DNA from: Hordeum vulgare subsp. vulgare
Lineage: Eukaryota; Streptophyta; Magnoliopsida; Poales; Poaceae
Direction: 5' to 3'
Assembly (NCBI RefSeq): GCF_904849725.1
Contig: NC_058520.1
Location: forward strand, 536,290,083 to 536,354,082
Length of the DNA: 64,000 nt
In this document: in pieces, positions 2,379 through 59,225 of the stretch
Layout: each line of letters begins with the position of its first letter
Position numbering within the stretch: position 1 is the stretch's first letter
Notes under the pieces: model-generated
Seen by the model: only the letters and a program-made list of their open reading frames with translations
Told to the model about the DNA's origin: nothing
Databases searched by the model: none
Program-made: the position numbers and the translations under genes

Positions 2379-2396
2379 TCGCGCCGTTGCCGGGGA
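2379..2396 (+). other. Primer binding site of A1, tRNA-Asp type
   Basis: TCGCGCCGTTGCCGGGGA matches the complement of the plant tRNA-Asp 3' end (TGGCGCCGTTGCCGGGGA) at 17 of 18 positions and lies 11 bases after the LTR. Confidence 0.85.
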
Positions 2397-4379: not shown

Positions 4380-4397
4380 TGGCGCCGTTGCCAGGGA
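4380..4397 (+). other. Primer binding site of B1, tRNA-Asp type
   Basis: TGGCGCCGTTGCCAGGGA matches the tRNA-Asp 3' complement at 17 of 18 positions and lies 11 bases downstream of the LTR end. Confidence 0.9.
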
Positions 4398-14877: not shown

Positions 14878-14891
14878 TGGTATCGGAGCAG
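14878..14891 (+). other. Primer binding site of Sukkula, initiator-Met tRNA type
   Basis: TGGTATCGGAGCAG begins four bases after the LTR and differs by one base from the TGGTATCAGAGC core used with plant initiator tRNA-Met. Confidence 0.85.
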
Positions 14892-18049: not shown

Positions 18050-18063
18050 TAGTGTAGGAGAGT
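18050..18063 (+). other. Putative polypurine tract of Sukkula
   Basis: TAGTGTAGGAGAGT lies directly before the 3' LTR start. The purine run is short, so the call rests mainly on position. Confidence 0.5.
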
Positions 18064-21000: not shown

Positions 21001-22920
21001 ACTTCACTTAACGTGTAGTGTTTGATTGTGTGGTTTGACATGCCGCGACTTGCATGTAGTCAGCTGCTCATGCATCATATGTGTTGTGCATCGTGTGGTG
21101 AATATCGTGTGTTGATGCTTGTTTCTGGTTTGCTTCGTCTCGATAGAGTTCCGCAAGCGTGTCGGATGTGAGGACCCATTCGACTACGTCGGTTCGTCTG
21201 CTTCACGGAGGCATTCTTCTTCCAAGTGGGATCTCAGGCAAGATGACCATTTCCCCAGATACCATTACTATCGTTGCCATGCTAGTTTTACCGTTTCTAT
21301 CGATTATGTCTCGTTGCCTACCACATGTTGAATTTCAGCCTCTCAACAATGCCATGAAAACCTTCAACCTGCTCAACCTAGCAAACCACTGATTGGCTAT
21401 GTTACTGCTTGCTTAACCCTGTTGATAGCTTTGCTAGTTGCAGGTGCAGTTGCTTCCATGTGAAAACATGGGTTCCTTGTTATATCACCATATTAATGCT
21501 ATTTCATTTAATGCACCTATATACTTGGTAAAAGGTGGAAGGCTCGGCCTTTCTAGCCTGGTGTTTTTTCCACCTTTGCCCCCTTAGTTTCGGCTACCGG
21601 TGTTATGTTCCATAACTGAGCGCTCCTAACACGATCGGGGTTGTTATGGGGACCCCCCTAATAATTCGTTTTAGATTAAAGCTGGTGTGGCAAGGCCCAA
21701 CATTGGTACTATTTGCCCAACATAATAATTCTGTTAATCTGAAATGCATAGGGAGTTAGCGCTACCCGAGGAGTAATTCTACATAATACAGGGGGGCCAG
21801 TGCTGTTGGTGCTGGTCCAAAACTAGAGCCGTTTGCGGGGCCAACCCGGGGCAACTCGGGAGATTTCTATCAGGCCACCGTACGCTGTGCTTATCCGTCG
21901 TGTCCTGAGAACAAGATACGCGGCTCCTATCGGGATCGTCGACACGCTGGGCGGCCTTGCTGGATTTGTTTTACCTTTCACAAGATATCTTGTGCATCGG
22001 GATTCCGGTGATGCTTTGGGTAATCTCAGAGTTGAGGTTTTCCACTAGGGAATCCGACGAGATCGCGAGCTTCGTGATTGAGGATTTCTATGCGGCTTGT
22101 GGTAATTTGTGATGGACTAGTTGGAGCACCCCTGCAGGATTAAATCTTTTCGGAAAGTCGTGCCCGCGGTTATGTGGCAACGTGGAAACTTTGTTTAACA
22201 CTTGTTCTAGATAACTTGAAGTTAATTTAATTAAAATATGCCAACTATGTGCATAACCGTGACTGTCTCTTTCGTGAGTTCCTTCTCCGATCGAGGACAC
22301 GGTGGGGTTATGTCTGACGTAGATAGGTGTTCAGGATCATTCATTTGATCATCCGTAGTTCACGTCCGCTAAGCGTAGATCTTCCCCCTCTTATTTCTTG
22401 TACTCGTAAGTTTAGCCACCTCATTTATGCTTAGCCGCTGCTGCATCCTCACCACTTAACCATGCCTCACCATTAAGCTTTGCTAGTCTTGATATCTTTG
22501 GAAATGAGATTGCTGAGTCCCGTGTGGCTCACAGATTACTACAACACCAGTTGTAGGTACAGGTAAAGGTTACTTGACGCGAGCGCGTTGATTGTTCATT
22601 TGGAGTTGCTTCTTCTTCTTCATCGATCTAGGATGGGTTCTAGGCCGGGAGCCTGGGATAGCAAGGATGGACGTCGTTCTTATTTTGTCGTTTGTTTTCG
22701 TCCGTAGTCGGACCCTGCTCTTACTCTTGATGATTATGTAATGTACTGATGTGACTCCGATGTAGCTTGTGGCGAGTCTAAGCCAACTCTATATAAATCT
22801 CTTCTTCTCAGTACATGTACTTGTAACGATGTCCATTCTTGCAACACGACGAGATGCGCTTCTATCCCTGACGAGGCCCTCGTGCCTAATTGAGGATAGG
22901 GTCGCATCTTGGGCGTGGCA
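18064..22920 (+). repeat. Right (3') LTR of the Sukkula element, 4857 bp
   Basis: Full-length partner of 10045-14874 with scattered substitutions and small indels; its TATA box is at 18629-18636. An extra ~30-bp GC-rich stretch lies near 18860-18890. It ends GGGCGTGGCA, where the left LTR has GGGCGTGACA, followed by the CGGGC target copy. Confidence 0.92.
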
Positions 22921-27255: not shown

Positions 27256-27273
27256 TCCCCGGCAATGGCGCCA
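27256..27273 (-). other. Primer binding site of A2, tRNA-Asp type
   Basis: The minus strand reads TGGCGCCATTGCCGGGGA, one mismatch to the tRNA-Asp complement, 10 bases from the LTR end. Confidence 0.9.
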
Positions 27274-27283: not shown

Positions 27284-28829
27284 TGCTGCTTCTCAAACAA
27301 CAACGCCAAATTTTGACACGTTGACGGAGATTGGGCTTGCGTTGGTTTTTCCCTTGAAGAGGAAAGGGTGATGCAGCACATGAGCAGTAAGTATTTCCCT
27401 CGGTTTGAGAACCAAGGTATCGATCCAGAAGGAGGGTCTGGTCAAGTCCAGAGTACCTGTGCAAACATAAACAAACTTGCACCCAACGCTTCAAAGGGGT
27501 TGTCAATCCCTTCAAGACTGTTTGCAAAAGTGAGATCTGAAGGCGGAAAGTGCAACGAAGTAAAAAGTGTAAGGCTGAAAATATGGTGTGGAGTAGACCG
27601 TGGGGGCATAGTGTTCACTAGAGGCTTCTCTCAAAATAGCAAGTATTACGGTGGGTGAACAAATTACTGTCGAGCAATTGATAGAACCGCGCAAAGTCAT
27701 GATGATATCTAAGGCAATGATCTGGCATATAGGCATCACGTCCGAGACAAGTAGACCGATACTTTCTGCATCTACTACTATTACTCCACACATCGACCGC
27801 TATCCAGCATGCATCTAGTGTATTGAGTTCATGACGAACAGAGTAACGCTTTAAGCAAGATGACATGATGTAGAGGGATAATCTCAAACCAATGATGAAA
27901 ACCCCATGTTTTTACCCTTGATGGCAACAACATGATACGTGCCTCGCTACCCCTTCTGTCACTGGGTGAGGTCACCGCACGGTATGAACCCAAAACCAAG
28001 CACTTCTCCCATTTCAAGAATCATAGATCTAGTTGGCCAAACAAAATCCACAACTCGAAGAGAATTACAAGGATATGAAATCATGCATAAGAGAGGACAG
28101 AAGAAACTCAAATAAGATTCATAGATAATCTGATCATAAATCCACAATTCATTGGATCTCGACAAACACATCGCAAAAGAAGATTACATCGGATAGATCT
28201 CCATGAAGATCATGGAGAACTTTGTATTGAAGATCCAAGAGAGAGAAGAAACCATCTAGTTACTAGCTATGGACTCGTAGGTCTATGGTGAACTACTCAC
28301 GCATCATCGGGGAGGTCATGGTGTTGATGGAGAAGCCTTCCATGTCCGAATCCCCCCTCCGGCAGGGCACCAGGACGTGCCCCAGATGGGATCTTGCGGA
28401 GACAGAAGTTTGCGGCGTCGGAAAAGTGATTACGATGCTCCCCTGATTTTTTTGGGAATATTTGGGAATTTATAGGAGCAAGATCTAGGTCAGGGGACCT
28501 CCAGGGGGCCCACAAGCCTGCATGGCGCGCCCCCTGGCCGCGGGGTGGGGGCTTGTGGGGCCCCTGGGGCTCCTCTGGGTTGCCCCCCAAGCTCTCCGAT
28601 CTTCTTCCGTTCCAGAAAAAATCTTTTCTGGGATTTTCTTCCGTTTGGACTCCGTTTCAAAATCTCCTCTGAAAGGGGTAAAAAACATGGAAAAAACAGG
28701 AATTGGTACTTGGCACTGAGTTAATAAGTTAGTCCCAGAAAATAAATAAAAGGCATGCAAAACATCCAAAGTTTGACAAGATAATAGCATGAAACCATCA
28801 AAAATTATAGATACGTTGGAGACGTGTCA
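27284..28829 (-). repeat. 5' LTR of A2 (1546 bp)
   Basis: The minus strand begins TGACACGTCTCCAACGTATC (28829 downward; the third-fourth bases differ from the usual TGATACG) and ends GAAGCAGCA at 27284. The last ~60 bases include TTTGGCGTTGTTG, a possible decayed primer-site copy. Confidence 0.88.
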
Positions 28830-29994
28830 GGCCCCCCTGGCCGCGCCTGGCAGGCTTGTGGGGCCCACAAAGCTCCACCGCCTCTAATCTCAGCTCTATA
28901 TATTCCATTTCATCCGGAAAAAAAAATCAGGGAGAAGGATTCATCGCGTTTTACGATACGGAGGCACCGCCACCTCCTGTTCTTCATCTCGAGGGCAGAT
29001 CTGGAGTCCGTTCTGGGCTTTGGAGAGGGGAAATCGTCACCATCGTCATCATCAACCTTCCTCCATCGCCAATTCCATGATGCTCTTCACCGTTCGTGAG
29101 TAATCTCATCGTAGGCTTGCTGGACGGTGATGAGTTGGATGAGATCTATCATGTAATTGAGTTAGTTTTGACGGGGATCGATCCCTAGTATCCACTATGT
29201 TCTCAGATTGATGTTGCAGTACTTTGCCATGCTTAATGCTTGTCACTAGGGCCCGAGTGCCATGATTTCAGATCTAAACCTATTATGTTTTCGCCAATAT
29301 ATGTGTGTTTTAGATCCTATCTTGCAAGTCGTAGTCACCTACTATGTGTTATGACCCGGCAACCCCGGAGTGACAATAGCCGGAACCACTCCCGGAGATG
29401 ACCATAGTATGAGGAGTTCATGTATTCACCAAGTGTTAATGCATTCATTCAGTTCTTTATTAAAAGGAGAACCATAATATCCCGTAGTTTCCATTAGGAC
29501 CCCGCTGCCACGGGAGGGATGGACAATAGATGTCATGCAAGTTCTTTTCCGTAAGCACGTATGACTACATACGGAATACATGCCTACATTAGATTGACGA
29601 ACGGGAGCTAGTTACATATCTCTCCGTGTTATAGCTGTTACATGATGAATCACATCCGGCATAATCATCCATCACCGATCCAATGCCTACGAGACTTTTA
29701 CTACTAGTCCTTGCTACATTACTTTGCTGCTACTGTTGTCACTGCTGCTGTTGTTACTGTGTTGCTACTGCTGTTACTGGTTACTGTTGCTATTGTTGCT
29801 ACTACTGCTATCATACTACCTTGCTACTGATACTTTGCTGCAGACACTAAATCTTTCAGGTGTGGTTGAATTGACAACTCAACTGCTAATACTTGAGAAT
29901 ATTCTTTCGCTTCCCCTTGAGTCGAATCAATAAATTTGGGTTGAATACTCTACCCTCGAAAACTGTTGTGATCCCCTATACTTGTGGGTTATCA
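28830..29994 (+). repeat. 3' LTR of B1, from the dyad to the end
   Basis: It starts inside the dyad loop (GGCCCCCCTGGCCGCG) because A2 inserted there. The right arm GGCTTGTGGGGCC is at 28853-28865 and TATATATT at 28897-28904. The trinucleotide array is at 29700-29840. It ends CTTGTGGGTTATCA at 29994. It is closer to the B1 5' LTR than to B2, which supports its assignment. Confidence 0.85.
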
Positions 29995-36829: not shown

Positions 36830-37422
36830 CTACTCCTTCCTTATAAAGGTGAGGATCATCCCAAAAGTAATGTCTCAAGTCAAAGAAGAGTTTCTTCTTT
36901 TGCTGATATGTGAAACTAGGTGGTATATATTTGGCAACGATATAGTTTGCATAATCAGCATACCACGGTGCACTACGTGAAGTATTGATGACATTCAATT
37001 GCTCATCAGGAAATCTATCATCAATAGGTTGTGGGTCATCAAGAACATTCTCCAACCTAGACAAGTTATCTGCTACAGGGTTATCAACACCCTTCCTGTC
37101 GACAACGTGCAAATCAAACTCTTGTAGCAAGAGAACCCATCTGATAAATCTAGGTTTAGCGTCTTTCTTCTCCATTAGGTACTTAATAGCAGCATGATCA
37201 GTGTGAATAGTGACTTTGGAATCAACTATGTAAGACCTGAACTTTTCACATGCAAACACGACTGCTAAAAATTCCTTTTTCGTAGTAGCATAGTTTCTTT
37301 GGGCACTGTCTAGAGTTTTACTAGCATAGTGAATGACATTCAACTTCTTATCAACTCTTTGCCCTAGAACAACACCAACAGCATAATCACTAGGATCACA
37401 CATGATTTCAAAAGGTAAGTTA
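36792..37422 (-). pseudogene. pol: RNase H and linker of C1, cut by element D
   Basis: The frame from 37403 reads [20 protein letters not shown], the start of the gypsy RNase H domain, then [40 protein letters not shown], and the chromatin-side linker to the integrase zinc finger. The sequence upstream of the RNase H start is found at 54823, on the far side of element D. Confidence 0.85.
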
Positions 37423-38989
37423 TGATGTCAGTTGTGCTTCCCCAGCAACGGCGACAGGAACAGTCGTGTCGACGGCACCAGGAATCCTTCTGCTACGGCT
37501 ATGGAGCCTTGCGTTGGTGTTCCCTCGAAGCGGAAAGGGTGATGTAGCACAGCGGTGGTAAGTATTTCCCTTAGTTTGAGAACCAAGGTATCAATCCAGT
37601 GGAGGAGTATCACAAGATCCTGCACAAAAACAAAAGCTTGCTCCCAACTCTATGAAGGGGTTGTCAATCCCTTATAGATTGTTCGCCAAGTGAGAACTGA
37701 AAGTAACAAAGTAACAAAGAAAAGGAAAAGCGGAGGTGTAAACGATGGAAGTGAATAGACCCGGGGGCCGTAGTGTTTACTAGTGGCTTCTCTCATGAAA
37801 GCAAGTAGACGGTGGGTGAACAAATTACTGTCGAGCAATTGATAGAACCCCGCAAAGTCGTGACGATATCTATGGCAATGATTATATCTATAGTCATCAC
37901 GTCCAAAACAAGTAGACTGATACTTTCTGCATCTACTACTATTACTCCACACGTCGACCGCTATCCAGCATGCATCTAGTGTATTAAGTCAAAAAGAACA
38001 GAGTAACGCCTTAAGCAAGATGACATGATGTAGATGGACAATCTCATATCAACGATAGAGCCCATCTTGTTACCCTTGATGGCAACTACTTAATGTGTGC
38101 CTTGCTGCCCCTACTGTCACTAGGAAAGGTCACCACATGGTAGAACCCAAAACCAAGCACTTCTCCCATTGCAAGAATCATAGATCTAGTTGGCCAAACA
38201 AAACCCAAGACTCGAAGAGACTTACAAGGATATCAAATCATGCATATAAGAAATCAGCAAAGACTCAAATATATATCATAGATAATCTGATCACAAATCC
38301 ACAATTCATCGGATCTCAACAAACACACCGCCAAAGAAGATTACATCGGATAGATCTCCATGAAGATCATGGAGAACTTTGTATTGAAGATCCAAGAGAG
38401 AGAAGAAGCCATCTAGCTACAAACTACGGACCCGTAGGTCTGAAGTGAACTACTCACGAGTCATTGGAGGGGCGATGATGATGATGAAGAAGCCCTCCAA
38501 CTCCAAAGTCCCCTCCGACAGGGCGCCGGGAAGGGTCTCCAGATGAGATCTCGCGGAAACGGAAGCTTGCGGTGGCGGAAAAGTATTTTCGAGGCTCCCC
38601 TGATTTTTTGTTGTATTTTAGGGAATATATAGGCCAAAGATCTAGGTCAGGGGGCAGCCAGGGAGGCCACAAGCCCTGCCACCGTCGCCTCCCTCTGGTG
38701 GCGGAGTTGGGGCTTGTGGGCTCCCAGGAGCCCTCCTGGCTTGGCCCACAGGCCCCCTGATCTTCTTCCGTTCGGGAAAAAATCATTTCGGGGATTTTAT
38801 TCCGTTTGGACTCCGTTCCAAAATCAGATCTGAAAAGAGCCAAAAACACAGAAAAAATAGGAACTGGCACTTGGCACTGAATTAATAAGATAGTCCCAAA
38901 AAAGATATAAAAGGTACATAAAACATCCAAAGATGACAAGATAAGAGCGTGAAACCATCAAAAAATTTAGATACGTTTGAGACGTATCA
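37423..38989 (-). repeat. 3' LTR of D (1567 bp)
   Basis: On the minus strand it begins TGATACGTCTCAAACGTATC and ends AGCACAACTGACATCA at 37423, directly at the target duplication. The last 68 bases (37423-37490) extend beyond the family A end (GTAGCA) and contain two primer-site-like copies. The dyad is at 38665-38720. Confidence 0.92.
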
Positions 38990-39972: not shown

Positions 39973-41498
39973 TGATACGTCCATTTTGCATCAAGCTTTC
40001 ATGTTGATATTTATTGCTTTTTGGGTTGTTATATTACTTGTGGTACCATATTTATGCCTTTTCTCTCTTATTTTGCAAGGATTATTTGAAGAGGGAGAAT
40101 TCAGGCAGTTGGAATTCTGGACTAGAAAAGGAGCAAATCCTAGTCCACTATTCTGCACATCTCCAAATGCCCTGAAAATTTACGTGGATTTTTTATGGAA
40201 TATATTAAAAATACTGGGCGAAAGAACTACCGGAGGGGGGCCACCAGGGCCCCACAAGCCCCACCCCGCCACCACCCCCCTAGTGGCGGTGGGCAAGCTT
40301 GTGGGCTGCCAGAAGGCCCACTAGCCCCCCTCTTTTGCTATATGAAGCGTCCTGGTCTGAAAAAATCAAGAGGGAGCTTTTTTGTGGTTTCGCCACCGCC
40401 ATGAGGCGGAACTTAAGCAGATCCAATCTAGAGCTCCGGCAGGACGTTCCTGCCGGGGAAACTTCCCTCCCAGAGGGGGAAATCATCGCCATCGTCATCA
40501 CCAACACTCCTCTCGTCGGAGGGGAGGCATCTGCATCAACATCTTCATCAGCACCATCTCCTCTCCAATCCCTAGTTCATCTCTTGTAATCAATCTTCGT
40601 CTCGCGACTCCGATTGGTACTTGTAAGGTTGCTAGTAGTGTTGATTACTCTTTGTAGTTGATGCTAGTTGGATTATTTGGTGGAAGAGTTTATGTTCAGA
40701 TCCTTGAAGCTATTCATTACACCTCTGGTCATGATTATGATTATGTCTTGTGAGTAGTTACTTTTGTTCCTGAGGACATGGGATAAGTCATGTTAATAAT
40801 AGTCATGTGAATTTGATATTCGTTCGGTATTTTGATATGTTGTTTGTTGTTTTTCCTCTAGTGGTGTTATGTGAACGTCGACTACATAACACTTCACCAT
40901 ATTTGGGCCTACAGGAAGGCATTGGGAAGTAGTAAGTAGATGATGGGTTGCTGGAGTGACAGAAGCTTAAACCCCAGTCTATGCGTTGCTTCGTGAGGGG
41001 CTGATTTGGATCCACTAGTTTAATGCTATGGTTAGACTTTGTCTTAATTCTTCTTTTGTAGTTGCGGATGCTTGCGAGAGAGGTTAATCATAAGTGGGAT
41101 GCTTGTCCAAGTAAGGGCAGTACCCAAGCGCCGGTCCACCCACATATCAAACTATCAAAGTAACGAACGCGAATTATATGAACATGATGAAACTAGCATG
41201 ACAGAAATTCCCGTGTGTCCTCGGAAGCGTTTTTCCTCCTATAAGACTTTGTTCAGGCTTGTCCCTTGCTACAAAAGGGATTGGGCCACTTGCTGCACCA
41301 TTGCTACTACTTGTTACTTGTTATTCTTTTCTTGCTACGTTTCACCTTGCTACACAATCACTTGTTACCGCTACTTTCAGTGCTTGCAGTTATTACCTTG
41401 CTGAAATCCGTTTATCAGAGCCTTCTGCTCCTCGTTGGGTTCTACACTCTTACTTATCGAAAGGACTACGATTGATCCCCTATACTTGTGGGTCATCA
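39973..41498 (+). repeat. 5' LTR of C2 (1526 bp)
   Basis: It begins TGATACGTCCATTTTGCATC and ends CCCTATACTTGTGGGTCATCA-type wording at 41498. The dyad is at 40252-40305 and TATATGAA at 40339-40346. Confidence 0.93.
40252..40346 (+). promoter_or_regulatory. LTR promoter block of C2: dyad plus TATA-like box
   Basis: Arms CCACAAGCCCC and AAGCTTGTGGG enclose a second inner pairing (CCGCCACCAC/GTGGCGG). A TATA-like TATATGAA follows about 35 bp later. Confidence 0.55.
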
Positions 41499-41509
41499 AG
41501 ACTCTTTTC

Positions 41510-41527
41510 TAGCGCCGTTTCCGGGGA
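41510..41527 (+). other. Primer binding site of C2, tRNA-Asp type
   Basis: TAGCGCCGTTTCCGGGGA has two mismatches to the tRNA-Asp complement and starts 11 bases after the LTR. Confidence 0.85.
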
Positions 41528-41604
41528 GTGAAGCGCCTTTGGTAAGTGGAAATTGGTAAGGAAACATTTTTATGCTGTGCTGAAATTTATTGTCACTTGT
41601 CACT

Positions 41605-42340
41605 ATGGAAACTTTTCCTTTGAGGAGTTTGTTCGGGGTATCTTCACCACGAACGGAAGCACGAGGAGTTGCTCCTCAACCTGAGGTACCTACTGAAAAT
41701 ATCTTTTATGAAATTCCTTTGGGTATGCTTGAGAAACTGCTGGCTAATCCTTTTACAGGAGATGGATCTTCACATCCAGACTTTCATCTAATCTATGTAG
41801 ATGAAGTTTGTGGTTTATTTAAGCTTGTAGGTTTTCCCGAGGATGAGGTAAATAAGAAAGTATTTCCTTTATCTTTGAAGGATAAGGCATTGACATGGTA
41901 TAGGCTATGTGATGATGCTGGATCATGGGGCTACAATCGGTTGAAGTTGGAATTTCATCAAAAGTTCTATCCTATGCATTTAGTACATCGTGATCGGAAC
42001 TTTATTTATAACTTTTGGCCTCGTGACAGGGAAAGCATAGCTCAAGCTTGGGGGAGGCTTAAATCAATGCTATATTCATGCCCCAATCACGAGCTCTCGA
42101 GAGAAATCATCACTCAAAACTTTTATGCTCGGCTTTCTCATGAAGATCGTACCATGCTTGACACTTCTTGTGCCAGTTCTTTTATGAAGAAGGATGTCGA
42201 TCACAAGTGTAATTTATTGGAGAGAATCAAACGCAACTTTGAAGATTGGGAGCTGGAGGAAGGTAAGGACTCAGGTATGAATTTCCAGTTTGATTGCGTT
42301 AAATCTTTTGTTGAGACAAACACTTCTAGAGATTTTTAGC
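41605..42340 (+). pseudogene. gag: gag of C2, ends in a frameshift
   Basis: ATG at 41605 gives METFPLRSLFGVSSP. The capsid-like core carries KVFPLSLKDKALTWYRLCDD, LEFHQKFYPMHLVHRDRNFI, AQAWGRLKSMLYSCPNHE and NFYARLSHEDR, the usual Athila gag sequence order. The frame stops at about 42337, where one extra T relative to C1 shifts it; the continuation (SAKYGLDSEIVASLCESFAA) is in the next frame with the protease. Gag would form the particle. An earlier non-ATG opening upstream is not needed. Confidence 0.88.
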
Positions 42341-43720
42341 GCCAAGTATGGACTTGACTCTGAGATAGTAGCTTCTCTATGTGAATCTTTTGCTGCTCAT
42401 GTTTATATTCCCAAAGAGAAGTGGTTTAAATATCATCCTCCTGTAGAAAGCAACATAGCCAAAACCAATCTAGTTGAGGAGAAAATCAAAGCTTTTAGTG
42501 ATCCTGTTGTTCCTTGTGCTTACACTGAGAAACCACCATACCTTGCTAGGATAAAGGATTATTCTAAAGCTCCAACTGTGATACGTAGGGGTTACATTAG
42601 ACCACTTGCACCCCCTGAGGAGATTAGAGTTGAACCTAGTGTTGCTATTATCAAAGATCTCTTAGCCGAAGACATAGATGGGCGTGTTATCAAATTCTGT
42701 GAGGACTCCGCTAGAATTGCTAAACCTCACGCGAAAGACAAGCACAGACCTGTAGTTGGTCTGCCCGTTGTTTCTGTTAAGATAGGAGATCACTGTTACC
42801 ATGGTTTATGTGATATGGGAGCTAGTGTTAGTGCAATACCCCGTTCTCTATATGATGAAATCAAAGATGAGATTGCACCTGCTGAGTTAGAACCCATTGA
42901 TGTCACTATTATGCTAGCTAATAGAGACACTATCTGCCCTCTGGGAATTGTGAGAGACGTAGAAGTCCTGTGTGGTAAGATGAAGTATCCTACTGATTTC
43001 CTCGTCATTGGTACTGCACAAGATAGCTTTTGTCCCATCATATTTGGTAGACCCTTTCTCAACACTGTCAACGCTCACATTGATTGCATTAAGCAGACTG
43101 GCACAGTAAGTTTCGAGGGTGTGTCTCACGAATTTAACTTCTCCAAGTTTGGAAGACAAACCCATGAAAGAGAGTCGTCTGGTAGAGATGAAATCATTGC
43201 TCTTGCCTCTATTTCCGTACCTCCTACGGATCCTTTAGAGCAATATCTGCTTGAACATGAAAATAATATGCATATGGAGGAGAGAGATGAGATAGATAGA
43301 ATTGTCTTAGAACAACATCCTATTCTCAAGAATAATCTGCGTGTTGAACTGCTTGGGGATCCTCCCCCACCAAAGGGTGATCCTGTGTTCGAGCTTAAAC
43401 AGTTGCCAGATACTCTTAAGTATGCCTATCTTGATGAGAAGGAGATATATCATGTCATTATTAGTGCTCTCCTCTCAGAGCGCGAAGAGAAGAAGTTAGT
43501 AAAAACTCTGAGGAAGCACCGCGCTGCTATTGGATATACTCTTGTTGATCTTAACGGTATTAGTCCTACTCTATGTCAGCACAAGATTAAAACCGATCCT
43601 AACTTTAAACCAGTTGCTGATCATCAAAGGAGATTAAATCCTAAGATGAAAGAGGTCGTTAGAAAAGAAATATTAAAAGCTTCTGGAAGCAGGAATCATT
43701 TATCCTGTTGCTCATGGTGA
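42290..43720 (+). pseudogene. pol: gag end, aspartic protease and start of pol of C2
   Basis: A 476-codon frame covers the gag C-terminus, a linker, and a retropepsin with active-site motif CDMGASVSAIPRSLYDE (Asp codon 42812-42814) and IIFGRPFLNTVNAHIDC. An acidic linker (EENNMHMEERDEIDR-type) and the lead into reverse transcriptase (HKIKTDPNFKPVADHQRRLN) follow. A one-base insertion near 43680 shifts the frame, giving KASGSRNHLS where C1 has KLLEAVIIYPVAHSDW. The protease itself appears intact. Confidence 0.85.
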
Positions 43721-44506
43721 TTGGGTAAGTCTAGTACATTGCGTACCTAAGAAGGGAGGTATCACCGTCGTTCCTAATGATAAGGATGAACTAATCCCAC
43801 AAAGGATTATTACCGGCTATAGGATGGTGATAGACTTCCGAAAACTGAACAAGGCAACCAGGAAAGATCATTATCCTTTGCCGTTCATCGACCAAATGCT
43901 AGAAAGGCTATCAAAACACACACACTTTTGCTTTCTAGACGATTATTCAGGTTTCTCGCAAATACTTGTTGCACAATCTGATCAAGAGAAAACCACTTTC
44001 ACCTGCCCTTTCGGTACCTTTGCCTATAGAAGTATGCCTTTTGGCCTATTTAATGAACCCGCCACCTTGCAAAGATGTCTGATGGCTATATTCTTTGACT
44101 TTTGTGAAAAGATTGTCGAGGTTTTCATGGATGACTTCTCCGTTTAAGGGTCTTCCTTTGATGATTGCCTCAGCAACCTTGATCGAGTCTTACAGAGATG
44201 CGAAGAAACCAACCTCGTCTTGAATTGGGAGAAGTGCCACTTTATGGTTAATGAAGGTATCGTCTTAGGACACAAAGTCTCTGAAAGAGGCATTGAAGTT
44301 GATAAGGCTAAGGTTGATGCAATTGAGAAAATGCCTTGCCGCACAGATATCATAGGTATACGAAGTTTCCTATGTCATGCGGTTTCTATAGAAGGTTCAT
44401 TAAAGACTTCTCTAAGATTTCTAGGCCTCTTACCAACCTCTTGCAGAAGGATGTTCCTTTTGTTTTTGATGAGGATTGTGAGGAAGCTTTCTAAATACTT
44501 AAGAAG
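43684..44506 (+). pseudogene. pol: Reverse transcriptase of C2, broken
   Basis: The domain reads through MVIDFRKLNKATRKDHYPLP, FIDQMLERLSKHTHF, MPFGLFNEPATLQRC and the catalytic FMDD (44124-44135). A TAA at 44145 replaces the tyrosine codon seen in C1. The reading then continues open (NWEKCHFMVNEGIVLGHKVS) to a frameshift near 44375, and the thumb region is garbled. It is inactive as it stands. Confidence 0.88.
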
Positions 44507-44860
44507 GCTTTGATAACTGCACCTATTGTTCAACCACCTGACTGGAACTTGCCCTTTGAAATCATGTGTGACGCTAGTGATTATGCTGTTGGTGCTGTTC
44601 TAGGACAAAGAGTTGACAAGAAGTTGAATGTCATTCACTACGCTAGTAAAACTCTAGACAGTGCCCAAAGAAACTATGCCACTACGGAGAATGAATTTTT
44701 AGCAGTCGTGTTTGCATGTGAAAAGTTCATATCTTACATAGTTGACTCCAAAGTCACTATTCACTCTGATCATGCTGCTATTAAGTACCTCATGGAGAAG
44801 AAGGATGCTAAGCCTAGGCTGATCAGATGAATTCTCCTGCTATAGGAATTTGATTTGCAC
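44507..44860 (+). pseudogene. pol: RNase H of C2 with two stops near its end
   Basis: The frame from 44510 contains [40 protein letters not shown] and [20 protein letters not shown]. It stops at TGA 44828-44830 (Trp in C1), and TAG follows a few codons later (Gln in C1). Most of the domain is readable. Confidence 0.85.
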
Positions 44861-46384
44861 GTCGTTGACCGAAAGGGTGCTGATAACCCTGTAGCAGATA
44901 GCTTGCCTAGGCTAGAGAATGTCCTCAATGACCCACTACCAATTGATGACAGCTTTCCTGATGAGCAATTAAATGTCATCCGCACTTCACTTCGTGCACC
45001 GTGGTATGCCGATTATGCAAACTATATCGTAGCCAAATACATACCACCCAATTTCACCTATCAACAGAAGAAGAAATTCTTCTTTGATTTGAGACACTAC
45101 TTTTGGGATGATCCTCACCTTTATAAGGAAGGAGTAGATGGTGTTATTAGATGTTGTGTGCCTGAACATGAACAGGGACAGATCTTGCAGAAGTGTCATT
45201 CCGAAGCCTACGGAGGACACCATGCTGGAGATAGAACTGCCCATAAGGTATTGCAATCAGGTTTCTATTGGCTCACTCTCTTCAAGGATGCCCGTAAGGT
45301 TGTCTTGTCTTGCGACGAATGCCAAAGGATAGGGAACATCAGTAAGCGTCAAGAGATTCCTATGAACTATTCACTTGTCATTGAACCATTTGATGTCTGG
45401 GGCATTGATTATATGGGACCCTTCCGTAGTTCCAATGGGTACACTCACATCTTAGTTGCTGTGGATTACGTTACTAAGTGGGTAGAAGCTATCCCCACTA
45501 AAAATTCTGATCACCACACCTCTATTAAGATGCTTAAAGAAGTCATATTCCCAAGATTTGGAGTCCCTAGATACTTGATGACTGATGGCGGTTCACACTT
45601 CATTCATAGTGTTTTCCGCAAGATGCTAGTTAAGTATGATGTCAACCATAGAGTTGCATCTCCTTATCATCCTCAGTCTAGTGGTCAAGTTGAGTTGAGT
45701 AATAGGGAGATCAAGTTGATCCTACAAAAGATCGTCAATAGATCTCGAAAGAACTGGTCTAGCAAACTTGACGATGCACTATGGGCTTATAGGACTGGTT
45801 ATAAGAATCCGATGGGCATGTCACCGTATAAAATGGTTTACGATAAGGCCTGCCATTTACCTCTTGAGCTGGAACACAAAGCTTATTGGGCAATCAAAGA
45901 GCTCAACTTTGATTTCAAACTTGCCGGTGAGAAGTGGTTGTGTGATATCAGCTCGTTAGATGAATGGAGAGCCCAGGCATATGAGAATGCCAGGTTGTTC
46001 AAGGAAAAGGTTGAGAGATGGCACGACAAACGAATACAGAAACGAGAGTTCAATGTAGGTGATTATGTCTTGCTATACAATTCTCGTTTGAGATTCTTCG
46101 CAGGAAAGCTTATCTCTAAATGGGAAGGTCCCTATGTTGTTGAGGAAGTATATCGTTCCGGTGCCATCAAAATCAATAACACGGAAGGAAATTTTCCTAG
46201 AGTGGTAAATGGCCAAAGAATCAAGCATTACATCTCTGGTACTCCCATAAATGTTGAGACCAATATCATCAATGTCATAACTCCAGAGGAGTACATAAGG
46301 GATGTTTATCAGCCTGTTTCAGACCTTGAAAACGAAGATGTATCTGTTTCGGCAAGAAATTGGACTCTGATACTTTTCCAATAG
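44855..46384 (+). CDS. pol: Integrase-containing open frame of C2 (509 codons)
   Basis: The frame begins at the RNase H-integrase linker (HVVDRKGADNPVADSLPRLE) and contains a complete gypsy integrase. The zinc-binding [11 protein letters not shown]...CDEC module (about residues 110-155) is followed by the core with Asp codons 45407-45409 (VWGIDYMGPF) and 45584-45586 (YLMTDGGSHF) and Glu codon 45692-45694 ([10 protein letters not shown]), which is D-x35-E spacing. The C-terminal GPY-type block is KWEGPYVVEEVYRSGAIKIN. It would join the element ends to target DNA. It is only the C-terminal part of the pol polyprotein and has no start of its own, so the open frame may be by chance; no chromodomain is seen. 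Confidence 0.85.
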   Translation: MHVVDRKGADNPVADSLPRLENVLNDPLPIDDSFPDEQLNVIRTSLRAPWYADYANYIVAKYIPPNFTYQQKKKFFFDLRHYFWDDPHLYKEGVDGVIRCCVPEHEQGQILQKCHSEAYGGHHAGDRTAHKVLQSGFYWLTLFKDARKVVLSCDECQRIGNISKRQEIPMNYSLVIEPFDVWGIDYMGPFRSSNGYTHILVAVDYVTKWVEAIPTKNSDHHTSIKMLKEVIFPRFGVPRYLMTDGGSHFIHSVFRKMLVKYDVNHRVASPYHPQSSGQVELSNREIKLILQKIVNRSRKNWSSKLDDALWAYRTGYKNPMGMSPYKMVYDKACHLPLELEHKAYWAIKELNFDFKLAGEKWLCDISSLDEWRAQAYENARLFKEKVERWHDKRIQKREFNVGDYVLLYNSRLRFFAGKLISKWEGPYVVEEVYRSGAIKINNTEGNFPRVVNGQRIKHYISGTPINVETNIINVITPEEYIRDVYQPVSDLENEDVSVSARNWTLILFQ

Positions 46385-46394
46385 GAAATTTCCT

Positions 46395-46660
46395 CAGTTT
46401 TGGAATTTTTGGAAAATTAGAAAAATAAAAAGCAGTCTGGAGAGCAAACGAGGAAGCCACAAGGGCCCACTCCGCCACCACCCCCTGGTGGCGGTGGGCA
46501 GGCTTGTGGGCACCTTGTGTGCCTCCCGGACCCTGTTTTCTTGCGGAGGACTCCTTCTGGCCCAGAAAAAATCAATATATAGTCGCCCGAAGGTTTTAAT
46601 CTCCGTATCGCGTAGTTTTCCTCTATTTTCGTTTCGAGCTTGTTGTCTGCCGCAGATTTA
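46395..46660 (+). promoter_or_regulatory. Dyad-containing promoter-like cassette before the C2 third ORF
   Basis: A T/A-rich lead (TTTTGGAATTTTTGGAAAAT) precedes the dyad (GCCACAAG 46456-46463; CTTGTGGGC 46503-46511), whose inner part CCGCCACCACCCCCTGGTGG nearly repeats the C2 LTR dyad. CCCAGAAAAAATCAATATATAG with a TATA-like box follows at 46576-46581, about 90 bp before the ORF start. Order and wording copy the LTR promoter. Confidence 0.55.
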
Positions 46661-46668
46661 GAGCATAG

Positions 46669-47055
46669 ATGTCTCAGGAATCTGTTGGGGAGAATGATCT
46701 TCACCAAGTTCATGAGGAAGTAGATGCTGATCTAAAAATAGTAAAAGTTACGGAAGCCAGGGACCAAGCTAAGGAGAAAACCCAAGCTAGGGAGGAAGTT
46801 CAACCTATGTTCAACATTGAAGACTTTGAAGGAGTAGACTTTCTCCAACCCTTCCTCCACATGCTGTCTCCATCCTTGATTGACCTCTTGAGGTTTTGCG
46901 AAACAACTCGTGCTCGCAATATTTCGCTTTCTCGTGAAGTTGTTTTGCTGGAAAACCATGTCACAAATCTCAAAGGTATAAATCAAAGATTGATAACTCT
47001 CTTGGAATCAAAGGCGACAACAACAACACCATCACCACCAAAGGGAGGCAACTAA
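46669..47055 (+). CDS. Third ORF of C2, 128-residue coiled-coil-like protein, unknown function
   Basis: It starts at ATG 46669 (MSQESVGENDLHQ). The acidic N-terminal third is followed by VDFLQPFLHMLSPSLIDLLR and RFCETTRARN, a heptad-like leucine/valine helix (SREVVLLENHVTNLKGINQR), and a Thr/Pro/Ser-rich tail. No signal peptide, membrane segment or catalytic motif is seen, so it is not an envelope protein by appearance. It lies 285 bp after integrase, in the place where Athila elements carry an additional ORF. It is intact although gag-pol of the same element is broken. The C1 copy (34883-35293) conserves the central block best. Confidence 0.65.
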   Translation: MSQESVGENDLHQVHEEVDADLKIVKVTEARDQAKEKTQAREEVQPMFNIEDFEGVDFLQPFLHMLSPSLIDLLRFCETTRARNISLSREVVLLENHVTNLKGINQRLITLLESKATTTTPSPPKGGN

Positions 47056-48588
47056 GAATTGGTATGGGCAATCCCCTTGGCTTCTGCCAAGCTTGGGGGA
47101 GTTGCCCTGGTATCGTATGACCTTCATATCTTTTGCTTTTACCTTTGTTTCAGTTCTTTCCTTTGTCAGTTTTTATTTCTTCTTTTAGAGGAATAAGTCT
47201 TTAGTTTTTAGTTTGAGTCTTTTGCTTTTGTCTCTCCCCCAATGTATTCGAGCTTACGAGCTATATAATAAATAGTTTCGTAGTTAAGGGCTTTGCTTTG
47301 TGCCATGATCAAAGAGTATGAAAAGAACGATAGCATGAAAGATCATGAGACGATCTTATGGAAAGTGATAAATTCACTTATGACACATATGATGATTGAA
47401 ACTTGTTGAGAATAAATCAACATATACCTCAGTCATTGTTGCAATTAATAAGAAGTACTAAGAGAGGTTCACATATAAATATATCATCTTAGACACTTTT
47501 TACGATTGTGAGCACTCACCAAACTATTACATGCCTAGGAGTAGATGTTGGACAAGGAAGACAACATAATGAATTGTGTTTGCTTGGTTCCAAACAATGT
47601 TATATGATTAGAGATCCCTTAGCATGTGACGATTGCTTCCACCTCATATTAGCCAAAACTCCCGCACCAAGTAGAGATACTAATTGTGCATCCATAAACC
47701 TCCAACCAGTTTTGCCATGAGAGTCCACCATACCTACCTATGGATTGAATAAGATCCTTCAAGTAAGTTGTCATCGGTGCAAGCAATAAAAATTGCTCTC
47801 TAATATGTATGATCTATTAGTGTGTGGAAAATAAGCTTTGTACGAACCTGTGGTGAGGAAGACATAAAAGCGACAGACTGCATAATAAAGTTCTTTATCA
47901 CAGGAGGCAATATAAAGTGACGTTCCTCCGCACTAAGAGGACACGCATCCAAACCTCAAAAGTGCATGACAACCTCTGCTTCCCTCTGCGAAGGGCCTAT
48001 CTTGTACCTTTACTTTTTACCCTTGTAAGAGTCATGGTGATCATCACCAATTCCCTTTTTGCCTTTGTCTTGGCTACCGTCACATGCTTGGGAAAGATCT
48101 ATATTCATATATCAACTTGGAGTTGAGTACTCATGCTTTATTGTTGTTGACTTTACCCTTGAGGTAAATGGTTGGGAGGCAAAACTATAAGCCCCTATCT
48201 TCCTCTGTGTCCAGCTAAAACTTTGACACCATGAGTACCACGTGAGTTATAACAATTGTGGAAAACAAAAGAGATGATTGAGTATGTGGATTTGCCTTAC
48301 AAGCTCTTATTTGACTCTTTCTGATGTTGTGATAAATTGCAATTGCTTCAATGACTATGGACTATTGTTGCTTACCTCTCGGTAAGGTTTTTTGCTTCAT
48401 GCTTTGCTTTGTGAAGGAATTGTTACTTTCCCATGAGAATCTTTATGATGTATTGCTATTCTATGTGTGATCATGATGCTCTCATGTTCGTATTATGTTT
48501 TATCGACACCTTCGTCCCTCAACATGCGGACATGTTTATGGAACTTGGTTTTCGCTTGAGGACAAGCGAAGTCTAAGCTTGGGGGAGT
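47056..48588 (+). other. C2 non-coding 3' region and polypurine tract
   Basis: No supportable ORF in 1.5 kb. AAGCTTGGGGGAGT (48575-48588) directly precedes the 3' LTR and is the polypurine tract. A similar AAGCTTGGGGGAGT occurs at 47090-47103, soon after the third ORF, as a second copy. Confidence 0.8.
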
Positions 48589-49228
48589 TGATACGTCCAT
48601 TTTGCATCAAGCTTTCATGTTGATATTTATTGCTTTTTGGGTTGTTATATTACTTGTGGTACCATATTTATGATGGGTTACTGGAGTGACAGAAGCTTAA
48701 ACCCCGGTCTATGCGTTGCTTCGTGAGGGGCTGATTTGGATCCACTAGTTTAATGCTATGGTTAGACTTTGTCTTAATTATTGTTTTGTAGTTGCGGATG
48801 CTTGCGAGAGAGGTTCATCATAAGTGGGATGCTTGTCCAAGTAAGGGCAGTACCCAAGCGCCGGTCCACCCACATATCAAACTATCAAAGTAACGAACGC
48901 GAATTATATAAACATGATGAAACTAGCATGACAGAAATTCCTGTGTGTCCTCGGGAGCGTTTTTCCTCCTATACGACTTTGTTCAGGCTTGTCCCTTGCT
49001 ACAAAAGGGATTGGGCCACTTGCTGCGCCGTTGCTACTACTTGTTACTTGTTACTCTTTGCTTGCTACGTTTCACCTCACTACACAATCACTCGTTACCG
49101 CTACTTTCAGTGCTTGCAGTTATTACCTTGCTGAAATCCGTTTATCAGAGCCTTCTGCTCCTCATTTGGTTCAACACTCTTACTTATCGAAAGGACTACG
49201 ATTGATCCCCTATACTTGTGGGTCATCA
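48589..49228 (+). repeat. 3' LTR of C2, internally deleted (640 bp)
   Basis: The first ~82 bases and the last ~558 bases match the 5' LTR. The part equivalent to 40057-40941 is missing. The join is at 48670-48672 with a 2-bp TG overlap. The dyad and TATA box are lost. Confidence 0.93.
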
Positions 49229-53227: not shown

Positions 53228-53245
53228 TCCCCGACAACGGCGCCA
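53228..53245 (-). other. Primer binding site of D, tRNA-Asp type
   Basis: The minus strand reads TGGCGCCGTTGTCGGGGA, one mismatch to the tRNA-Asp complement, 10 bases from the LTR end. Confidence 0.9.
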
Positions 53246-53255
53246 GAAATACTTT

Positions 53256-54822
53256 TGATGTCAGCTGTGCTTCCCCGGCAACGGCGACAGGAATAGTCAT
53301 GTCGACGGCACCAGGAATCCTTCTGCTACGGCTATGGAGCCTTGCGTTGGTGTTCCCTCGAAGCGGAAAGGGTGATGTAGCACAACGGTGGTAAGTATTT
53401 CCCTTAGTTTGAGAACCAAGGTATCAATCCAGTGGAGAAGTATCACAAGATCCTGCACAAACACAAAAGCTTGCTCCCAACCCTATGAAGGGGTTGTCAA
53501 TCCCTTATAGATTGTTCGCCAAGTGAGAACTGAAAGCAACAAAGTAACAAAGCAAAGTAAAAGCGGACGTGTAACCGATGGATGTGAATAGACCCGGGGG
53601 CCGTAGTGTTTACTAGTGGCTTCTCTCATGAAAGCAAGTAGACGGTGGGTGAACAAATTACTGTCGAGCAATTGATAGAACCGCGAAAAGTCATGACGAT
53701 ATCTATGGCAATGATTATATCTAGAGGCATCACGTCCAAAACAAGTAGACCAACACTTTCTGCATCTACTACTATTACTCCACACGTCGACCGCTATCCA
53801 ACATGCATCTAGTGTATTAAGTCGAAAAGAACAGAGTAACGCCTTAAGCAAGATGACATGATGTAGATGGACAATCTCATATCAACGACAGAGCCCATCT
53901 TTTTACCCTTGATGGCAACTACTTAATGTGTGCCTTGCTGCCCCTACTGTCACTGGGAAAGGTCACCACATGGTAGAACCCAAAACCAAGCACTTCTCCC
54001 ATTGCAAGAATCATAGATCTAGTTGGCCTAACAAAACCCAAGACTCAGAGAGACTTACAAGGATATCAAATCATGCATATAAGAAATCAGCAAAGACTCA
54101 AATATATATCATAGATAATCTGATCACAAATCCACAATTCATCGGATCTCGACAAACACACCGCCAAAGAAGATTACATCGGATAGATCTCCATGAAGAT
54201 CATGGAGAACTTTGTATTGAAGATCCAAGAGAGAGAAGAAGCCATCTAGCTACTAACTACGAACCCGTAGGTCTGAAGTGAACTACTCATGAGTCATTGG
54301 AGGGGCGATGATGATGATGAAGAAGCCCTCCAACTCCAAAGTCCCCTCTGGCAGGGCGCCGGGAAGGGTCTCCAGATGAGATCTCCCGGAAAAGGAATCT
54401 TGCGGCGGCGGAAAAGTATTTTCGAGGCTCCCCTGATTTTTTGTTGTATTTTAGGGAATATATAGTCCAAAGATCTAGGTCAGAGGGCGGCCAGGGAGGC
54501 CACAAGCCCTGCCATCGCCGCCTCCCGTGGTGGCGGAGTGGGGGCTTGTGGGCTCCCAGGAGCCCTCCTGGCTTGGCCCACAGGCCCCCTGATCTTCTTC
54601 CGTTCGGGAAAAAAATCATTTCGGGGATTTTATTCCGTTTGGACTCCGTTCCAAAATCAGATCTGAAAAGAGCCAAAAACACAGAAAAAACAGGAACTGG
54701 CACTTGGCGCTGAATTAATAAGTTAGTCCCAAAAAAGATATAAAAGGTACATAAAACATCCAAAGATGACAAGATAACCGCGTGAAACCATCAAAAATTA
54801 TAGATACGTTTGAGACGTATCA
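53256..54822 (-). repeat. 5' LTR of D (1567 bp)
   Basis: Same length as 37423-38989 and the same extended end (53256-53323). The dyad arms are at 54498-54508 and 54543-54552. Confidence 0.92.
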
Positions 54823-54827
54823 AGTTC

Positions 54828-57615: not shown

Positions 57616-59197
57616 TGATACGTCTCCATCGTATCTACTTTTCCAAACTCTTTTGCCCTTCTTTTGGACTCTAATTTGCATGATTTGAATGGAACTAACC
57701 TGGACTGACGTTGTTTTCAGCAGAATTGCCTTGGTGTTTTTTTGTGCAGAAATCAAAGTTCTCCAAACGTCCTGAAAATCTACGGGGAGCAGTTTTGGAA
57801 AATATAAAAAATATCTGCGCCAAGTTTTGGAAAATATAAAAAATATCGGGCGGTGGGCAAGCTTGTGGGGCCCACACAGCTCTGTCGCCCCCAACCTCAG
57901 GTCTATAAGTTCACTTTCGTCCCAGAAAAAATAAAAAGAGAAGTTTTCGCCGCGTTTACGATACGGAGGCGCCTTTACCACCTGTTCTTCATCTGGAGGG
58001 AAGATCCGGAGTCCGTCTTGGGCTCCGGAGAGGGGAAATCGTCGCCATCGTCATCCTCAACCTTCTTCCCTCTCCAATTCCATGAAGCTCTTCGTCGTTC
58101 GTGAGTAATCCATTCGTAGGCTCGCTGGGCGGTGATGAGTAGGATGAGATCTATCATGTAATCGAGTTAGTTTTGATGGGGATTGATCCCTAGTATCCAC
58201 TATGTTCTGAGATTGATGTTGCTACTACTTTGCCATGCTTAATGCTTGTCACTAGGGCCCGAGTGCCATGATTTCAGATCTGAAATTATTATGTTGTCAC
58301 CAATATATGTGAGTTTTAGATCCGATCTTGCAAGTTGTAGTTACCTACTATGTGTTATGATCCGGCAACCCCGGAGTGACAATAACCGGAACCACTCCCG
58401 ATGATGACCATAGTTTGAGGAGTTCATGTGTTCACCAAGTGCTAATGCGTTGGTCCGCTTCTTTATTAAAAGGAGAACCTTAATATCCCGTAGTTTCCTT
58501 TTGTACCCCGCTACCACGGGAGGGATGGACAATAGATGTCATGAAAGTTCTTTTCCCTAAGCACGTATGATGACACACGGAATGCATGCCTACATCACAT
58601 TGACGAACGGGAGCTAGACACATATTTCTCTGTGTTATAGCTGTTGCATGATGAATATCATCCAAACTAATCACCGACCCATTGCCTACGAGATTGTCCT
58701 ACTGTTGCTACTGCTGCTACTACTGTTGCTACTGTTGTTACTTGTTTTGCTCTGCTACTGCTACTACTGTTGCTACTGATGTTACTTGTCTTGCTCTGCT
58801 GCTGCTGCTACTACTGTTGCTACTGCTGTTACTTGTCTTGCTTTGCTGCTACTGTTGCTACTACTGTCGCTTGCTACTGTTGCTACTTGCTACTGCTGTC
58901 ACTACCGTTGTTCCTTGCCACTGCCATTACTCTCTACTTTGTTGTTACTACTTTGCTTGCAGATACTAATCTTTCAGGTGTGGTTGAATCTGATAAATTC
59001 AGCTGCTAATACTTGAGAGTATTCTCTCACCTCCCGTCGTGCGAATCAACAAATTTGGGTCGAATACTCTACCCTCGAAAACTGCTACGATCCCACGCGC
59101 TGGTGGGTGTCAACAACATTCTTCTAGTTTTGATTGCCGGAGAGTGCTAACAGCATTCTTCTGGTGTCGTTGCAAAGGGGAAGAACAGTTGACATCA
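57616..59197 (+). repeat. 5' LTR of B2, with extended 3' end (1582 bp)
   Basis: It begins TGATACGTCTCCATCGTATC. The family B end (CTGGTGGGTGTCA) is at 59112, but 10 bases before the primer site there is a second end, ACAGTTGACATCA, at 59197. All other elements here have 10-11 bases between LTR and primer site, so 59197 is the better boundary. The dyad right arm is at 57859-57872 and TATAAG at 57904-57909. Confidence 0.75.
58690..58965 (+). repeat. Expanded trinucleotide array in the B2 LTR
   Basis: About 275 bp of TTGCTACTGCTGCTACTACTG-like triplets with TTACTTGTCTTGCTCTGC interruptions, about twice the B1 tract. It yields Cys/Leu/Tyr-rich frames in several phases. Confidence 0.85.
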
Positions 59198-59207: not shown

Positions 59208-59225
59208 TGGCGCCGTTGCCGGGGA
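59208..59225 (+). other. Primer binding site of B2, tRNA-Asp type, perfect
   Basis: TGGCGCCGTTGCCGGGGA is a perfect 18-base complement of the plant tRNA-Asp 3' end. Two decayed copies lie upstream (about 59120-59150 and 59160-59182). Confidence 0.92.

What the first reader, a model, noticed from the sequence alone, without database searches (positions are those of the whole stretch)
37423..37490. Element D's LTR has grown outward and swallowed two primer-site-like copies
In sense orientation family A LTRs end GTAGCA about 10 bases before the tRNA-Asp primer site. In D, GTAGCA is followed by 68 more bases holding a first copy (TTCCTGGTGCCGTCG), a second (CTGTCGCCGTTGCTGGGGA) and a new end (ACAACTGACATCA), and only then the working primer site. 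Both D LTRs carry this extension (37423-37490, 53256-53323) and the insertion has a target duplication directly at the new end, so the longer LTR was truly copied and integrated. This looks like stepwise shift of the LTR/primer-site boundary, perhaps by priming at a duplicated downstream site.
Basis: partly seen in the sequence, partly recalled or inferred. Interest (0 to 1): 0.8.

Follow-up and report, generated by a model that had tools for sequence, protein, structure and literature searches.

The report
Primer-site ladders inside barley retrotransposon LTRs
Some retrotransposons in this probably barley genome carry several copies of the site where their copying starts, and in some of them the end repeat has moved outward past old copies, leaving a visible record of how the element's boundary shifts.

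Summary
Both LTRs of element D end 68 nt beyond GTAGCA, over two tRNA-Asp primer-site (PBS) copies, and D is integrated exactly at the new end (gapless empty site in a relative; TSD GAACT/TAACT, 4 of 5).

The window's genome, probably barley, was searchable. All 20 D-type LTR ends I fetched keep the extension. Of 10 elements probed for a second end, 4 gave it, all 4 with perfect TSDs at the new end. A relative (F, LTR 88% like D) has a different PBS-bearing extension with a perfect TSD. A second LTR family carries two, three or more internal copies; three elements checked have TSDs (5, 5 and 4 of 5). In one of them the 5' LTR holds one 43-nt rung more than the 3' LTR.

Two near-perfect PBS lie within 45 nt at 1,395 places (40,070 exact PBS in all; reversed-pattern control 0). 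In L115 (TSD perfect), and probably L124, the extra PBS lie in the leader and the LTR still ends at GTAGCA.

Best reading: a PBS ladder whose primed rung sets the LTR boundary; new rungs probably arise by template switching near the PBS, partly between families. Rung choice and origin are inferred.

The parts
53256..54822 (-). 5' LTR of element D (sense on - strand), ending GACATCA at 53256
   Evidence: 96.4% identical to the 3' LTR over 1573 columns; starts TGATACGTC
37423..38989 (-). 3' LTR of element D, same extended end at 37423
   Evidence: K2P 0.0353 between the two LTRs
53256..53323 (-). 68-nt extension beyond GTAGCA, 5' LTR
37423..37490 (-). 68-nt extension beyond GTAGCA, 3' LTR
53300..53313 (-). 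rung 1: decayed first 14 nt of a PBS, preceded by CA and 10 nt
37467..37480 (-). rung 1 in the 3' LTR
53272..53289 (-). rung 2: PBS copy, 17 of 18, preceded by CA and 10 nt
37439..37456 (-). rung 2 in the 3' LTR, 16 of 18
53256..53271 (-). new LTR terminus AGCACAGCTGACATCA, alike at 14 of 16 in the C59 element of another LTR family
37423..37438 (-). new LTR terminus in the 3' LTR; its first 9 nt equal the leader after the PBS of C1
53228..53245 (-). present PBS of D; 10-nt spacer 53246-53255
37418..37422 (.). target duplication beside the 3' LTR end (TAACT in sense)
54823..54827 (.). target duplication beside the 5' LTR start (GAACT in sense), 4 of 5 alike
44546..44551 (+). uninterrupted homologue of D's target site in element B
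27291..27308 (-). possible decayed PBS copy (12 of 18) in the LTR of A2, 7 nt before the spacer of its PBS at 27256-27273
   Evidence: chance p 0.18 for the short match; by eye like the end of the class I tandem unit plus PBS; not tested further
57616..59197 (+). 5' LTR of element C59 (other LTR family), inferred end GACATCA
   Evidence: starts TGATACGTC; its 3' LTR lies outside the window; LTRs of the same type are verified at L098 and L102
59126..59143 (+). C59 rung 1, decayed (10 of 18)
   Evidence: not significant in the matrix scan (rank 202); relatives carry it at 9-11 of 18
59162..59181 (+). C59 rung 2 (PBS copy with a 2-nt insertion)
59208..59225 (+). present PBS of C59, exact
4380..4397 (+). 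PBS of C1, same LTR family as C59 but no rungs; LTR ends GGGTTATCA; leader AGCACAACT
2379..2396 (+). PBS of A1 (family A, no rungs found; GTAGCA plus 11 nt)

Best explanation
These Gypsy elements (the tRNA-Asp-primed Sabrina/WHAM/Wilma-BAGY2 type) carry ladders of primer-binding sites around the end of the 5' LTR. Shown: rungs occur inside the LTR in at least two LTR families, with target duplications at the outer end; in another lineage the array lies in the leader and the LTR ends before the first rung; one insertion has LTRs that differ by one whole rung; a terminal block is shared between families. Inferred: the tRNA primes at one rung per cycle and that choice sets the LTR end, because everything between R and the primed rung is copied into both LTRs. 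Priming at an outer rung makes the LTR swallow the inner ones, which then decay; priming at an inner rung leaves the outer ones in the leader. New rungs most likely arise when minus-strand strong-stop DNA, started on one RNA and having copied its spacer and LTR terminus, switches to the leader just downstream of the PBS of a co-packaged RNA (sometimes of another family using the same machinery). That adds leader stub + LTR terminus + spacer + PBS. Once two rungs exist, the PBS repeats let rungs be gained or lost one unit at a time.
For: Matrix scan: the five best hits after the six working sites, of 127,946 positions, are D rung 2 (both LTRs), C59 rung 2 and D rung 1 (both LTRs). Each of the three sites in D's ladder is preceded by CA plus exactly 10 nt. 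Match to the PBS falls inward: D 11, 17, 17 of 18 from inside to working site; F 11, 14-16, 16; L102 11, 15, 16, 18; L103 16, 18, 17, 18, with one exception. 20 of 20 fetched D-type LTR ends keep the extension: 9 run into spacer+PBS, 11 into unrelated DNA. Of 10 D-type elements probed for a second end, 4 gave it, all 4 with 5 of 5 TSDs at the new end. F: different extension in the same LTR family, TSD GCGGG twice. L102 TSD CAAGG twice; L098 ACGGG/AGGGG; L103 GGGCT twice, with one 43-nt rung more in the 5' LTR. 1,395 tandem pairs genome-wide, reversed-pattern control 0; 40,070 exact PBS. L115: PBS at 15, 18 and 18 of 18 after GTAGCA, yet its 3' LTR ends GTAGCA, TSD CCACA twice. Switch signature: after D rung 2 come 9 of 9 nt (3' LTR) or 8 of 9 (5' LTR) of the C1 leader, then a terminus shared with C59 (26-nt block 20 of 26, 0 of 200,000 shuffles). 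L096 joins a D-family LTR to a C59-type spacer, PBS and leader.
Against: No priming was measured; the rung used is deduced from LTR ends. The extra rung of L103 differs from its neighbour at 6 of 43 positions (counted by hand), so it is not a fresh exact duplication; loss of that rung from the 3' LTR between PBS repeats, even after integration, explains it equally well, and its LTR start was picked from two candidates because of the matching TSD. D rung 1 and C59 rung 1 are weak as single matches. Six of the 10 D-type elements probed, and L120 and L123, gave no usable second end. Arrays in the leader (L115, probably L124) show that arrays can exist without the LTR having moved, so they may arise by another route. 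GACATCA ends also occur without a copy of 12 of 18 or more within 50 nt: 12 of the 20 contexts I chose. In the unselected block only one of four elements has rungs.
Confidence: 0.7

Rival explanations
1. Terminus exchange without priming shift: D acquired its whole U5 end in one recombination with another family (C59-like), and growth, if any, happened once elsewhere.
For: Shared 26-nt block with C59, C1-like leader stub, recombinant L096, and several spacer classes behind GACATCA ends.
Against: F has a quite different extension in the same LTR family; unlike classes of tandem unit exist; the donor would itself carry a ladder that needs explaining.
Confidence: 0.2
2. Rungs arise in chromosomal DNA by slippage or unequal recombination of a PBS-containing segment and are then carried along by transposition; reverse transcription plays no part in making them.
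For: Units are tandem and bounded by PBS repeats; L103 shows a whole-rung difference that could be post-integration.
Against: The first rung has no repeat to slip on, and D's unit is composite (leader stub of one type, LTR terminus shared with another), which slippage does not make.
Confidence: 0.25
3. PBS-like motifs in U5 are kept by selection as extra tRNA-binding or priming-control elements, not fossils of boundary shifts.
For: They recur in more than one family and one copy inside an LTR is exact (L103).
Against: In D, F, C59-type and L102 the match falls with distance from the working PBS, and related elements lack the copies; not expected of a conserved function.
Confidence: 0.1
4. Chance resemblance, or a family whose LTR always ended there.
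For: Rung 1 of D alone is only 11 of 18.
Against: chance; D aligns with family A along the LTR; GTAGCA end with TSD in family A.
Confidence: 0.02

Closest known systems
RLG_Sabrina / RLG_WHAM / RLG_Wilma (BAGY2) system of Triticeae (PMC9744471 and PMC5738225; passages seen)
   Same: tRNA-Asp PBS (wheat paper), conserved LTR starts, non-autonomous GAG-protease elements beside an autonomous one; in barley, DNA homology between BAGY2 and the others is reported as limited to LTR 3' termini and the PBS. D is about 8.14 kb by my hand sum and has gag and protease, close to the 8,030 bp (barley Sabrina) and 8.1-8.3 kb (wheat Sabrina_SA) printed there.
   Different: The passages I saw mention no internal PBS copies, tandem PBS or LTRs that end beyond a PBS; the alignment figures were not available. 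Family names for A/D, B and C are my inference from length and content.
Cereba / Quinta pair of wheat centromeres (PMC11302176; passages seen)
   Same: Partners share PBS and LTR termini; sequence exchange by template switching is proposed.
   Different: Exchange is described around the GAG gene; no PBS ladder or boundary shift in the passages seen.
Retroviral recombination at the PBS and repair of altered PBS by template switching (recalled; PMC3187697 seen in a search listing with the start of its abstract)
   Same: Strong-stop synthesis and strand transfer around the PBS as a place of recombination.
   Different: I recall no natural series of LTRs that incorporate former PBS, with target duplications.

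Membership tests
LTR retrotransposon (Gypsy) | Paired LTRs with TG...CA ends | tested here: met
LTR retrotransposon (Gypsy) | 5-bp target duplication at the LTR ends | tested here: met
   D 4 of 5; four other D-type elements 5 of 5
LTR retrotransposon (Gypsy) | PBS after the 5' LTR and purine-rich tract before the 3' LTR | tested here: met
   PBS 53228-53245; GGGGATGCT before the 3' LTR
Sabrina/WHAM/Wilma-BAGY2 group | PBS matching the 3' end of grass tRNA-Asp | tested here: inconclusive
   The wheat paper states the identity; the tRNA letters are recalled, not fetched; all six window elements share one PBS type
Sabrina/WHAM/Wilma-BAGY2 group | Identical first nine LTR nucleotides among the families | tested here: met
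   TGATACGTC in A1, B, C59, D and the 3' LTR of A2; A2's 5' LTR reads TGACACGTC. The paper's own letters were not seen
RLG_Sabrina (for D) | About 8 kb, GAG-protease, no RT or integrase | tested here: inconclusive
   gag and aspartyl protease in the two D ORFs scanned; length fits; the rest of D was not scanned for RT; no reference sequence available
Known multi-PBS elements | A described precedent of LTRs containing former PBS | tested here: inconclusive
   Of ten full-text searches, aimed at this and listed no such paper by title and abstract start; one search listed only 30 of 61 papers; the library is open-licence only

The most novel reading that the evidence does not exclude
A whole guild of co-packaged plant retrotransposons shares a recombining 'boundary cassette' (LTR terminus + spacer + PBS). 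Cassettes are stacked into ladders by template switching across families, the primed rung decides where the LTR ends, and the LTR boundary thereby slides outward and inward over evolutionary time while decaying rungs record its path. This would also explain why partner families share only LTR 3' termini and PBS.
Probability: 0.45. Interest if true: 0.85.

Novelty: new variant of a known kind. Interest (0 to 1): 0.72.

Why it matters
LTR boundaries are usually treated as fixed properties of a family. Here they appear to move in whole steps and leave fossils, so one can ask which primer site is used, how LTRs lengthen, and how autonomous and non-autonomous partners keep compatible ends. It may also matter in practice: annotation that takes the first PBS after an LTR, or dates elements from LTR pairs, can go wrong where rungs exist or where the two LTRs differ by a rung.

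Tried and rejected
Looking for grass relatives outside the genome led nowhere. Exact-pattern scans of viral contigs with the PBS plus TTC, the D terminus, a C/B-type LTR end and the LTR start gave 0 each. The 17-base PBS core gave 19 stretches which by flanks and G+C (0.50-0.71) look like ordinary phage or bacterial DNA (judged by eye). Two protein scans gave no relative. The one genome-contig scan gave one locus, L001, probably plant DNA in a leaf-symbiont assembly. Plasmids and phages: no match.

A2 as a ladder member was not significant by shuffling (p 0.18); it later looked real by eye beside the class I unit, untested. C59 rung 1 is not significant by matrix (rank 202). A D-only origin was rejected. 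A fresh exact duplication as the source of the L103 rung was rejected because the unit differs from its neighbour. A tRNA-derived origin of the linker does not fit the tRNA letters as I recall them.

Counts wanted but not obtained: numbers of GTAGCA-ended and GTCGACA-ended elements, and the ratio of all D-type ends to those followed by a PBS (not completed). The 100 places listed (of 1,395) were grouped by eye only; I give no class counts. In 1,395, a triple counts as two places.

Full report
What is in the window. Element D lies on the minus strand with LTRs 53256-54822 and 37423-38989; 54 of 1566 aligned sites differ (K2P 0.0353, about 1.4 My at a recalled grass rate of 1.3e-8). Its internal part is split by element B (39973-49228), which has integrase, while the two D ORFs scanned give gag and protease. 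Both D LTRs read, in sense, GTAGCA, then GAAGGATTCC + TGGTGCCGTCGACA, then a 10-nt spacer + TGTCGCCGTTGCYGGGGA, then AGCACARCTGACATCA, and end there. The 5' copy goes on with a 10-nt spacer and the PBS TGGCGCCGTTGTCGGGGA.

Is it more than chance? Eight sites lie within 3 mismatches of the PBS against 0.01 expected: six working sites and D rung 2 twice. A matrix of the six working spacer+PBS sites puts those six first and D rung 2 (twice), C59 rung 2 and D rung 1 (twice) next, among 127,946 positions, 6.7 bits above the following hit. Built without D's site the gap is 4.9 bits; without C59's site C59 rung 2 still ranks 11th, 2.7 bits above the next. Of 300 first-order resamples of the window, 73 hits reached the rung-1 score, 0.24 each, so rung 1 is convincing mainly through its place, where family A has its PBS. 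All three PBS in D follow CA + 10 nt.

Is the long LTR an integrated end? B has the target uninterrupted, and D's joined flanks align to it without a gap. TSD GAACT/TAACT. The extension is thus part of the LTR that was integrated.

A second LTR family. C59 (57616 onward) has an LTR of another family; C1 (5' LTR 3286-4368, 3' LTR by inference 28849-29994) is its rung-free relative, 86% alike over 926 columns. C59 carries two PBS-like copies, the inner one weak, before a terminus like D's, AGAACAGTTGACATCA. The 26 nt between rung 2 and the present PBS match D at 20 of 26, reached by 0 of 200,000 shuffles. The 9 nt after rung 2 of D's 3' LTR equal those after the PBS of C1; the 5' LTR has 8 of 9. 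So D's rung 2 and terminus look like pieces of C-type elements. C59's own 3' LTR lies beyond the window.

The genome. A 300-nt D query had 2,490 first-look candidates, of which 40 were scored and listed, at 97-100% identity. I fetched 20 of the 40, none of them in the window: all 20 align through the whole two-rung extension; 17 end GACATCA, L031 and L045 AACATCA, L037 GACAACA; 9 continue with spacer+PBS and 11 with unrelated DNA. The query biases this sample towards D. Of ten probed for a second end (the nine 5' LTRs and L033), four (L033, L037, L038, L046) gave it, with TSDs GCCCT, TGTCT, CACCT and GTGCT, all 5 of 5; six did not.

An unselected 200-kb block (C1:200.0-200.2 Mb, 5,000 N) gave seven matrix hits of 8 bits or more: four working PBS, two rungs of one element and one unrelated site. 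That element, F, has PBS copies inside both LTRs. F's LTR is 88% like D's but its extension is different (PBS copy at 14 or 16 of 18, then AGGTCTTTTGTT...CATAGCA), with TSD GCGGG on both sides and an 11-of-18 copy further in.

GACATCA + 8-12 nt + PBS occurs 3,711 times, reversed-pattern control 0. From the first 100 listed I chose 20 with different spacers, so the fractions below are not genome frequencies. Eight have internal copies of at least 12 of 18 within 50 nt of the LTR end (L096-L103), up to 18, 17 and 16 of 18 in L103; of the other twelve only L089 reaches 12 of 18, at 199 nt. L096 is a D-family LTR on a C59-type spacer, PBS and leader. For three of the eight I fetched the other ends. 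L102 has three rungs in both LTRs and TSD CAAGG twice. L098 has two rungs in both and TSD ACGGG/AGGGG. L103 has TSD GGGCT twice (its LTR start chosen from two candidates by this match), but its 5' LTR has one 43-nt rung more than its 3' LTR, while the other roughly 160 compared positions differ at 2.

Tandem near-perfect PBS (14 and 18 exact bases, 15-45 nt apart) occur at 1,395 places, control 0, against 40,070 exact 18-nt PBS. The 100 listed show several unlike inter-PBS units. Ten contexts, chosen by me for different units, have two to four PBS of at least 12 of 18 in series. For four of the ten I fetched possible 3' LTR ends: L115 ends its LTR at GTAGCA before the array, TSD CCACA twice; L124 also ends at GTAGCA (LTR start not found, TSD untested); L120 and L123 gave no usable end. 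So arrays also exist in the leader, without having been swallowed.

How it probably works. In reverse transcription of LTR elements the primed PBS fixes the U5 end of both LTRs (established knowledge). With several PBS in line, the rung used fixes the boundary: L115 fits priming at its first rung, D at its third. D's composite unit (leader stub of C1 type, terminus shared with C59) fits a switch of the nascent strong-stop strand from one RNA into another's leader. The papers propose that Wilma/BAGY2 supplies the enzymes to Sabrina and WHAM (PMC9744471 and PMC5738225, passages); that their RNAs share particles is my inference. Further gain and loss can use the PBS repeats themselves. The series of LTR ends with TSDs is shown; rung choice, co-packaging and switching are inferred.

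Known or new. The barley paper reports that DNA homology between BAGY2 and its partners is limited to LTR 3' termini and the PBS, and the wheat paper that LTR 3' ends keep only CA between families; neither set of passages mentions ladders. Searches (30 of 61 papers listed) listed no paper that by title and abstract start deals with LTRs containing former PBS. The library lacks most subscription journals, so this is weak evidence of absence.

Noticed in passing
L001:5457-5477 (LFMX01000099.1): A contig filed as Candidatus Burkholderia humilis (8-kb stretch, G+C 0.40) carries a plant-like tRNA-Asp PBS context, probably host-plant DNA in a leaf-symbiont assembly.
   Followed up: partly
window 10045-22917: An element with about 4.8-kb LTRs (95% alike) and only about 3.2 kb between them is nested in the 3' LTR of A2.
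   Followed up: no
window 9077-9083: C1 internal sequence and a truncated A2 3' LTR meet at a short shared stretch, so A2's own LTR end is lost.
   Followed up: partly
L089-L091, about 199 nt before the LTR end: A weaker PBS-like copy (10-12 of 18), in L089 with a spacer-like flank, lies much deeper in the LTR of family C; possibly a far older rung, possibly chance.
   Followed up: no
L119 (C1:22865955-22866332): After three PBS in series the sequence runs into AAGCTTGGGGATGC, which resembles the purine-tract region, as if most of the internal part were missing.
   Followed up: no
window 58706-58960: Short tandem repeats inside the C59 LTR.
   Followed up: no
G000 C1:200120323-200194472 (block positions 120323-194472): An A1-type 5' LTR and a 3' LTR end at GTAGCA lie 74 kb apart with flanks ACCTG/ACCTC, perhaps one heavily nested element.
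   Followed up: no
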